64,000 nucleotides of DNA from the NCBI RefSeq assembly GCF_009791395.1, contig NZ_WSZK01000026.1, positions 1 through 64,000 on the forward strand, read 5' to 3'. The DNA is from Halomarina oriensis (GTDB taxonomy: Archaea; Halobacteriota; Halobacteria; Halobacteriales; Haloarculaceae). The translations under genes were made by a program, and so were the position numbers. Numbering within the stretch: the first letter of the stretch is position 1; the number at the start of each line of letters is the position of its first letter. Positions 51,574 through 53,142 of this stretch are shown piece after piece. A model generated the notes under the pieces. The model searched no databases and was not told the origin of the DNA. It saw only the letters and a program-made list of their open reading frames with translations.

Positions 51574-53142
51574 TCAGGAGACGATGAACTGACTGGCGAT
51601 GTCGACGACCTCCTCCATCGAGCGGGCCGGGTCGAACGCGCCGCCGAACGGGGGCGCGCCGCCGTTGCGCTGGAGCATGATGTAGGTGGCGTGACGGGCC
51701 TCGACACTGTGGATGGAGGCCGCCGCGGCCAGTATCTCGTCGTTCTCGATGAGCGGTGCCGCACCGGCGTACGCGGAGACGCCGACGTTCTCGATGGTCG
51801 CCGACAGGTTCACGAACTCCTCGATGGACGAGTACGGGAACTCGTACTCGGCGGCCTCGACGGGCGTCCCACCGAGGTCCTTGATGGTCGCGCGGAGCGC
51901 TTCGACGTGAGCCACCTCGTGGTCGCGGATCTTCTCGTACTGCTGGTAGGTGCCGTAGCGCGGGCGACCGCCGCTGAACGTCTCCATCCCCGGACTGCCG
52001 AAGCCCTCGAAGTCGTCCTCGCTGTAGATCTTCAGCGCCTCGGTGTAGTAGTTCGCTTCGAGGTGTTCGAGCGTCAGCGCGAAGTTCAGGATGTCGACGT
52101 CCGTGACGTCGCCCATACCGCCCTTGTCGTCACCGACGCGGGAGGCGAGGCCCGTCATCAGGTCGACGGTGTAGAGTTCGCTCGCACCGTCGACGACGAA
52201 CAGGGCGTAGGCCGTCCCGTCGCTCCCCGAGATGTCGAAGCCGTTGACGGCCCCGACGTCGACGCCGAGCGACCCGATGGTCGTCAGGGCGCTGGTGTCG
52301 GGGGAGTCCGGGTTCGCGTTCTGCTGGACGAGCACGTCGAGGTTGCTGTCGATGTCGTACAGCATCGTCGTCTCCGGGTCGGGGACGCTGTTCGTGTACC
52401 CGGCGGCGCTGAGTTGCGGGTCGGTACCCGCGTTCGCGTCGCCCTCCGCGTAGAACGTGTCCGGGTCCTGCCTGATGATGGTCCCGTCGTCGGCGTTCGT
52501 GACGAAGCTGTCGCCATCGGTCGTGACGACGCGAATCGCGTCGGCGACCGGGTTGAAGTCGAAGCCGATGCCGGCCGAGAGGTCCGTGTCGGGGTAGTCC
52601 GCCGGCGACCCCACCGTGTGCGCCGAGACGGACGACGCCCCGCTCGACGGGACGTCCATCCGATAGAGCTGTCCGTGACCGTCGAGCGAGTACAGCATCC
52701 CGTCGGACGGTCGGTAGTCGAGACCGAGGAGTGTGCGCCCGTCCGCGACACCCTGGACGTGGACCGCGTGGTCCGTCTTTATCGTCCCGGAGTCGAGGTC
52801 GACACCGACGACCGCGTTCCCGTCGTCGGTCGCCAGCAGGGCGAGACCCATCTCCGAGTCCTCGTGCGGGACGAGCGTCAGTCCGTAGATGGGTGGTTCG
52901 TGGTCCGCGGCCGCGACGCCGCTGCCGACGACCGAGAGCGCCACAGCCCCGAGGCCCGCGGCACCTACTCCGTGCATGAACGAGCGTCTGCTGAGCGCGC
53001 TCCCGACGCGCCCGAGCAGTTCCGTCGGTGACTCGTCGCGGTGGGCGTCGTTCGTCCGGTCCCGGTCGCTCCCGTCGTCGACGAGATCGGCGAAGCTCTC
53101 TCCCGACTCGATTCGTGATTCGATGGTGTCCTGGTCCGTCAT
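51574..53142 (-). CDS. Tat-exported DUF4394 / ferritin-like fusion protein
   Basis: 522 residues. An unusual 50-residue acidic leader precedes the twin-arginine signal (S-R52-R53-SFMHGVG) with an Ala/Gly h-region, so export by Tat is likely. Residues about 82-340 carry a DUF4394-type beta repeat (YGLTLVPHEDSEMGLALLAT, LLGLDYRPSDGMLYSLDGHG, GVDVGAVNGFDISGSD). Residues about 348-515 form a Ferritin_2-like bundle: DVDILNFALTLEHLEANYYT, DHEVAHVEALRATIKDLGG and SIHSVEARHATYIML. Putative metal ligands are E359/E362, E409/H412 and E481/H484. The combination is rare as far as I know; iron or stress-related surface function is inference. Confidence 0.85.
   Translation of the reverse strand: MTDQDTIESRIESGESFADLVDDGSDRDRTNDAHRDESPTELLGRVGSALSRRSFMHGVGAAGLGAVALSVVGSGVAAADHEPPIYGLTLVPHEDSEMGLALLATDDGNAVVGVDLDSGTIKTDHAVHVQGVADGRTLLGLDYRPSDGMLYSLDGHGQLYRMDVPSSGASSVSAHTVGSPADYPDTDLSAGIGFDFNPVADAIRVVTTDGDSFVTNADDGTIIRQDPDTFYAEGDANAGTDPQLSAAGYTNSVPDPETTMLYDIDSNLDVLVQQNANPDSPDTSALTTIGSLGVDVGAVNGFDISGSDGTAYALFVVDGASELYTVDLMTGLASRVGDDKGGMGDVTDVDILNFALTLEHLEANYYTEALKIYSEDDFEGFGSPGMETFSGGRPRYGTYQQYEKIRDHEVAHVEALRATIKDLGGTPVEAAEYEFPYSSIEEFVNLSATIENVGVSAYAGAAPLIENDEILAAAASIHSVEARHATYIMLQRNGGAPPFGGAFDPARSMEEVVDIASQFIVS

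What the first reader, a model, noticed from the sequence alone, without database searches (positions are those of the whole stretch)
51574..53142. DUF4394-ferritin fusion with a Tat signal after a long acidic leader
One polypeptide joins a DUF4394 beta-rich domain to a Ferritin_2-like four-helix bundle with E/H metal-ligand candidates (E359/E362, E409/H412, E481/H484). About 50 acidic residues precede the twin-arginine motif, unusual for a Tat substrate. I am not aware of a characterised protein with this order. It could be an extracellular metal-binding or peroxide-consuming protein with a built-in scaffold.
Basis: partly seen in the sequence, partly recalled or inferred. Interest (0 to 1): 0.6.

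Follow-up and report, generated by a model that had tools for sequence, protein, structure and literature searches.

The report
Exported propeller–ferritin-like fusion metalloenzyme
A salt-loving archaeon appears to export a protein that joins a beta-propeller of unknown function to a ferritin-like enzyme domain whose relatives in tardigrades and Deinococcus are linked to surviving drying; the combination is rare but real, and it is one of a larger set of such proteins with interchangeable parts.

Summary
Window 53142-51574 (-) encodes 522 aa: a 51-residue acidic leader, a Tat motif (SRRSFM), DUF4394 (E 4e-59) and Ferritin_2/PF13668 (E 2e-44). The genome is a Halomarina. The fusion is rare: 5 of 391 Halobacteria genomes and one Haladaptatus plasmid, and none of 794 sampled Actinomycetota and Pseudomonadota genomes.

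The ferritin-like part belongs to the family of the tardigrade metabolite phosphatase RvFeMP-1 and Deinococcus DRB0118. Every predicted metal ligand (E359, E362, E409, H412, E451, E481, plus H484) matches DRB0118. It is therefore most likely an exported two-metal enzyme, plausibly a phosphatase; activity is untested. DUF4394 models as a beta-propeller.

The fusion is one of a modular set. Related haloarchaea carry Tat-exported Ferritin_2 proteins joined to CHRD, Lamin-tail, DUF302, DUF7282 or spondin-like domains, or to a second Ferritin_2. The six fusions' DUF4394 domains form one clade, but their ferritin-like domains do not (AU p 9e-38), so the enzyme module has been exchanged. The leader is not specific to the fusion: a DUF4394-less paralogue has the same one.

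Verdict: a new architecture built from known families.

The parts
51574..53142 (-). Fusion gene, 522 aa: leader, Tat signal, DUF4394, Ferritin_2
   Evidence: ORF and Pfam; conserved start and full-length homologues
52990..53142 (-). Acidic N-terminal leader, residues 1-51 (14 D/E, 5 K/R)
   Evidence: conserved in five fusions and in a DUF4394-less paralogue
52894..52989 (-). Twin-arginine signal (RRSFM + hydrophobic stretch, AxA-type end, no lipobox Cys), residues 52 to about 83
   Evidence: sequence; TIGR01409 15.2 bits against cut-off 16.7
52126..52776 (-). DUF4394 (PF14339), residues 123-339; beta-propeller model covers about residues 83-336
51679..52104 (-). Ferritin_2 domain (PF13668), residues 347-488; ligand candidates E359, E362, E409, H412, E451, E481, H484
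51580..52124 (-). Module shared with own-genome stand-alone paralogue G000:C24 (87% DNA identity over 554 columns, limited to linker plus Ferritin_2)

Best explanation
The gene encodes a Tat-exported two-metal enzyme of the PF13668 family (FeMP / Pcc13-62 / DRB0118). The four-helix domain folds and loads its metals in the cytoplasm, is exported folded by the Tat pathway, and hydrolyses phosphorylated metabolites such as nucleotides and sugar phosphates at the cell surface or outside. The DUF4394 propeller in front of it acts as the binding or positioning module. It is one architecture in a haloarchaeal set in which a Ferritin_2 catalytic module is combined with different extracellular accessory domains and has been exchanged between paralogues. 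Shown here: architecture, ligand conservation, propeller-type fold model, distribution, phylogenetic conflict between the two domains. Inferred: export, metal loading in the cytoplasm, phosphatase activity, role of the propeller.
For: phmmer finds only RvFeMP-1 (8KCE, 8WAI, 8W9K, 8X1K) in the PDB below E 0.1. Ligand columns are identical to DRB0118: E359/E362/E409/H412/E451/E481/H484, with G454 where RvFeMP-1 has D135, exactly as in DRB0118. Both RvFeMP-1 and DRB0118 dephosphorylated metabolites in vitro, and D135 mutants of RvFeMP-1 lost activity (PMC11616004). DUF4394 is modelled as a propeller with pLDDT mostly 70-89, matching five-bladed glutaminyl cyclases and other propellers. Bacterial DUF4394 proteins seen here are not fused to Ferritin_2, and the two Sphingomonas ones end in a PEP-CTERM-like PEPATWAMM, which fits an extracellular role. 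Modular partners. Module exchange.
Against: No activity data were found for any haloarchaeal member. DRB0118 and RvFeMP-1 activities are one to two orders of magnitude below known metabolite phosphatases and their native metals are unresolved (PMC11616004). The residue shown to be essential in RvFeMP-1 (D135) is glycine here, as in DRB0118. Exporting an enzyme meant for cleaning up damaged intracellular nucleotides makes little sense, so the physiological substrate must be different or is unknown. The structure model of the ferritin-like part is of low confidence, because only two sequences covered it.
Confidence: 0.45

Rival explanations
1. Exported redox enzyme: the site holds iron or manganese and consumes peroxide or oxygen (manganese-catalase- or rubrerythrin-like).
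For: The ligand set E...ExxH...E...ExxH is the canonical carboxylate-bridged diiron/dimanganese pattern (family knowledge). A Tat route would fit cytoplasmic loading of Mn or Fe. Relatives are linked to desiccation and UV, both oxidative stresses (PMC11616004).
Against: No match to classical ferritin, rubrerythrin or Mn-catalase profiles for this protein. The only characterised relatives found are phosphatases, with zinc or magnesium in the RvFeMP-1 crystals. The tardigrade Mn-dependent peroxidase g12777 is a different, beta-sandwich protein and gives no support (PMC9145152).
Confidence: 0.27
2. Structural or metal/phosphate-binding surface protein without important catalysis: both domains serve as binding modules in the cell envelope, protecting it during drying.
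For: The accessory partners in the set (CHRD, Lamin-tail, spondin-like, DUF4394) are extracellular binding or structural domain types (family knowledge). [quoted passage not shown]
Against: All metal ligands are retained in all six fusions, in spite of ferritin-domain identities down to 44%, which argues for a functional site.
Confidence: 0.2
3. The fusion is an accidental or decaying join with no special joint function; the two domains act independently.
For: It is rare: 2 of 8 Halomarina and 3 of 10 genomes of the other genus. A degraded copy with only the last ~60 residues of DUF4394 exists in H. caseinilyticus.
Against: Five genomes and a plasmid keep both domains intact and in the same order, the DUF4394 domains form one clade (99/94), and the Halomarina neighbourhood (gcvT-gcvH, fusion, CBS) is kept.
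Confidence: 0.08

Closest known systems
RvFeMP-1 (RvY_06210), tardigrade ferritin-like metabolite phosphatase, PDB 8KCE
   Same: PF13668 domain, E/ExxH/E/(D or E)xxH ligand frame, N-terminal signal, extra beta-rich domain fused to the ferritin-like domain
   Different: RvFeMP-1 carries an IgG-like domain at the C-terminus, not an N-terminal DUF4394 propeller; it has D135 where this protein has G454; its signal is eukaryotic, not Tat
DRB0118 of Deinococcus radiodurans
   Same: all seven ligand-region residues identical, including E362 (E76) and glycine at the D135 position; exported-type protein; demonstrated phosphatase in vitro; knock-out survives drying less well (as reported in PMC11616004)
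   Different: stand-alone, no DUF4394; lipobox-like LAGC rather than an AxA-type end; about 33% identical
Haloarchaeal Tat-Ferritin_2 proteins with other partners (DUF302 x2, Lamin-tail, CHRD, DUF7282, spondin-like, tandem Ferritin_2)
   Same: same Tat-exported catalytic module, same genomes in part, same modular logic
   Different: partner domain at the C-terminus in all but one (L066) of those seen; DUF4394 sits between the Tat signal and the module
Bacterial DUF4394 proteins (Deinococcus, Sphingomonas, Solirubrobacter)
   Same: same PF14339 domain with conserved GFDFNPVADAIR region
   Different: not fused to Ferritin_2 in the 794 bacterial genomes sampled; sometimes duplicated in one chain or with other tails

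Membership tests
PF13668 Ferritin_2 / FeMP (Tar-fer-related) | profile match above curated cut-off | tested here: met
   151.2 bits against 24.7
PF13668 Ferritin_2 / FeMP (Tar-fer-related) | two-metal ligand frame on four helices | tested here: met
   E359, E409, H412, E451, E481 align with RvFeMP-1 E51, E90, H93, E132, D162; identical to DRB0118. By sequence only; the model of this domain was too weak to check geometry
PF13668 Ferritin_2 / FeMP (Tar-fer-related) | Asp at RvFeMP-1 position 135, needed for its activity | tested here: not met
   Gly454; DRB0118 also has Gly here and is active (PMC11616004), so this does not exclude the broader family, only the RvFeMP-1 type
PF13668 Ferritin_2 / FeMP (Tar-fer-related) | metal-dependent phosphatase activity | not testable with these tools
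   needs purified protein
Tar-fer clade 1 | C-terminal IgG-like domain | tested here: not met
   nothing follows Ferritin_2; DUF4394 precedes it
PF14339 DUF4394 | profile match above curated cut-off | tested here: met
   200.1 bits against 29.6
Tat substrates | twin-arginine motif followed by a weakly hydrophobic stretch and cleavage-type end | tested here: inconclusive
   SRRSFM + AGLGAVALSVVGSGVAAA by eye; TIGR01409 15.2 bits, cut-off 16.7
Classical ferritin, rubrerythrin, Mn-catalase | profile match | tested here: not met
   no such hit for the window protein at E <= 1 in Pfam

The most novel reading that the evidence does not exclude
Haloarchaea run a modular set of exported two-metal enzymes in which one catalytic module (Ferritin_2) is paired with interchangeable extracellular domains, and in the DUF4394 fusions the propeller has stayed constant while the catalytic module behind it was repeatedly replaced by, or made alike to, the resident paralogues.
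Probability: 0.5. Interest if true: 0.6.

Novelty: new variant of a known kind. Interest (0 to 1): 0.45.

Why it matters
PF13668 is found from archaea to plants and animals, is tied to survival of drying, and has only recently received a first structure and activity. A family of exported archaeal members with different attached domains would let one ask what the substrate is outside the cell and what the accessory domains do. DUF4394 is mentioned in no paper of the library searched, so a fusion partner from a known enzyme family is a first functional clue for it.

Tried and rejected
Viral origin or phage copies: three scans of viral contigs found no relative. Relation to the tardigrade Mn-dependent peroxidase g12777: rejected, different fold. 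Pseudogene, frameshift or assembly join: rejected, five other intact full-length homologues. Recent foreign DNA by base composition: no sign, GC3 92% in both domains, GC 66-68% like the window's 68%. 'DUF4394 was inserted into a leader-bearing ferritin precursor': plausible from the G184 paralogue, but loss of DUF4394 from a fusion explains it as well, so not claimed (my checkpoint note 2 overstated this). Gene conversion inside Halomarina: the tree pairs each species' fusion with its own stand-alone copy (96/77 and 95/71) but the alternative is not rejected (AU p 0.13 and 0.19). Structure of the ferritin-like domain: two jobs, both low confidence there, so metal-site geometry was not checked.

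Full report
WHAT IS THERE. On the minus strand, ATG at 53142 to a stop at 51574 encodes 522 residues. Pfam finds DUF4394 (residues 123-339, E 4.3e-59) and Ferritin_2 (347-488, E 2.4e-44), both far above cut-off. Residues 1-51 are an acidic leader (14 D/E, 5 K/R), followed by RRSFM and a hydrophobic stretch ending in VAAADHE. The Tat model is just below its cut-off. No Cys at a lipobox position is present, so a soluble or otherwise attached exported protein is expected rather than a lipoprotein (sequence). The window's genome is a Halomarina: another genome of the same genus (G055) carries the locus on a contig of the same length as Halomarina rubra NZ_JALXFV010000008, at the same place.

IS IT REAL AND HOW RARE. 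Full-length homologues exist in H. rubra (77% identical), in three genomes of one genus in another family of the order (63%; unnamed handles G184, G353, G401) and on a plasmid of Haladaptatus caseinilyticus (56%). Among 391 Halobacteria genomes, five have a strong DUF4394 match and all five are this fusion; four weaker matches are other long proteins in which no Ferritin_2 domain was found. In the genus Halomarina 2 of 8 genomes have it, and in the other genus 3 of 10. A profile of the fusion found only separate DUF4394 or Ferritin_2 proteins in 396 Actinomycetota and 398 Pseudomonadota genomes (at most three candidates per genome were scored, so rare misses are possible). The gene order gcvT-gcvH / fusion / CBS-domain gene is the same in H. 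rubra.

THE FERRITIN-LIKE PART. The only significant relatives among solved structures are the entries of RvY_06210 = RvFeMP-1, a tardigrade protein shown to be a metal-dependent metabolite phosphatase, together with its homologue DRB0118 of Deinococcus radiodurans (PMC11616004). Aligned on these, the window protein has E359, E409, H412, E451 and E481 at the positions of RvFeMP-1 E51, E90, H93, E132 and D162. It has E362 and G454 at the positions of DRB0118 E76 and G194, and H484 is shared too. All are invariant in the six fusions. Because the same E/ExxH/E/ExxH frame also serves iron and manganese redox enzymes, sequence alone does not decide between phosphatase and redox chemistry; the phosphatase reading is preferred because it is the only activity I found measured in the family.

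THE DUF4394 PART. With a six-sequence alignment AlphaFold2 gave block means mostly of 70-89 pLDDT over residues 81-340, about 20 strands in sequence. The listed Foldseek matches are mostly propellers, the best by target-normalised score being five-bladed glutaminyl cyclases (3nol TMt 0.60, 2faw 0.56). A five-bladed propeller is likely, though the blade number is my reading of the strand list. No paper in the library mentions DUF4394 or PF14339.

THE LEADER. Among 47 related precursors the median distance from the chosen Met to RR is 26 residues; the window's 51 is at the upper end, with six others at 50-54. The leader is conserved in five of the six fusions (RIEAGESFADL, and LLxRVGxAL before RR), and also in a stand-alone Ferritin_2 protein of G184 (L041:2304-3152, 70% identical to that genome's fusion leader) that lacks DUF4394. 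So it goes with this precursor type and not with the fusion as such. It is longer than usual but not a unique feature.

A MODULAR SET. Ferritin_2 occurs in 52 of 145 Halobacteria genomes. In G184 and G206 the Tat-Ferritin_2 module is followed by two DUF302 domains (L052, L055), a Lamin-tail domain (L053, L063), a DUF7282 domain (L041), a CHRD domain (L064) or a weakly matched spondin-like domain (L054, L056); other genomes have tandem Ferritin_2 (L063 and L056 assigned by their similarity to L053 and L054). The DUF4394 fusion is therefore one item in a set with one constant enzyme module.

MODULE EXCHANGE. The six DUF4394 domains form one clade against 36 bacterial ones (99/94). The six ferritin-like domains do not: holding them together costs 300 log-likelihood units (AU p 9e-38), and even the five without H. 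caseinilyticus are rejected as a clade (p 3e-6). Likewise, domains with the same partner in G184 and G206 group by genome and not by partner (Lamin-tail pair p 1e-5, DUF302 pair p 9e-5), though the two spondin-like ones do group by partner. These groups were partly chosen after seeing the tree, so the p values are indicative. At the DNA level the window's module is 87% identical to the stand-alone copy on contig 24 over 554 columns limited to linker plus Ferritin_2, against about 83% to the same module of the H. rubra fusion. Within Halomarina the pairing of each fusion with its own stand-alone copy is only suggested. Either replacement or homogenisation by resident paralogues, or repeated joining of a travelling leader+DUF4394 segment to resident genes, would explain this.

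HOW IT LIKELY WORKS. Shown: architecture, ligand conservation, propeller model, distribution, conflict between domain histories. Inferred: the enzyme folds and takes up metals in the cytoplasm, is exported folded by Tat, and acts outside on phosphorylated metabolites, with the propeller binding a surface or ligand. An extracellular role sits awkwardly with the proposal that relatives clean up damaged nucleotides inside cells; scavenging of phosphate from dissolved nucleotides in brine would fit export better, but this is conjecture.

VERDICT. A real, rare and previously undescribed (as far as could be searched) arrangement of two known families. Of moderate interest by itself; more interesting as part of the modular set.

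Noticed in passing
L062:7311-8006 (own genome, contig 24); also L134:4965-5606, L135:4983-5624, L015, L017, L027, L059, L060, L054, L056: A pair of small genes, an ArsR-like winged-helix protein and a ~102-aa presumed membrane protein without a Pfam match, lies next to many Tat-Ferritin_2 genes, often directly upstream; it is absent beside the window fusion. Only three close copies of the winged-helix gene exist in the own genome.
   Followed up: partly
L073:5379-6577 (own genome, contig 7): A further copy of the small membrane gene, with a winged-helix copy just upstream, sits beside a Tat protein whose sequence resembles the spondin-like domain of the Ferritin_2 fusions, hinting that the gene pair serves exported stress-type proteins in general.
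   Followed up: no
L015:5001-5771: Second, apparently decayed copy of the fusion in H. caseinilyticus: only about 60 residues of DUF4394 are seen in frame with Ferritin_2 (the locus frame begins there).
   Followed up: no
L029, L031, L036, L040, L043, L044, L049: Tandem Ferritin_2 proteins in many haloarchaea, several with lipobox-like LAGC, whose two halves form two sister clades, i.e. one old duplication.
   Followed up: partly
L012:2606-15044: On its plasmid the H. caseinilyticus fusion lies among genes for exported proteins: halocyanin, CopD, a second ferritin-like protein, DUF547, spondin and DM13 domains.
   Followed up: no
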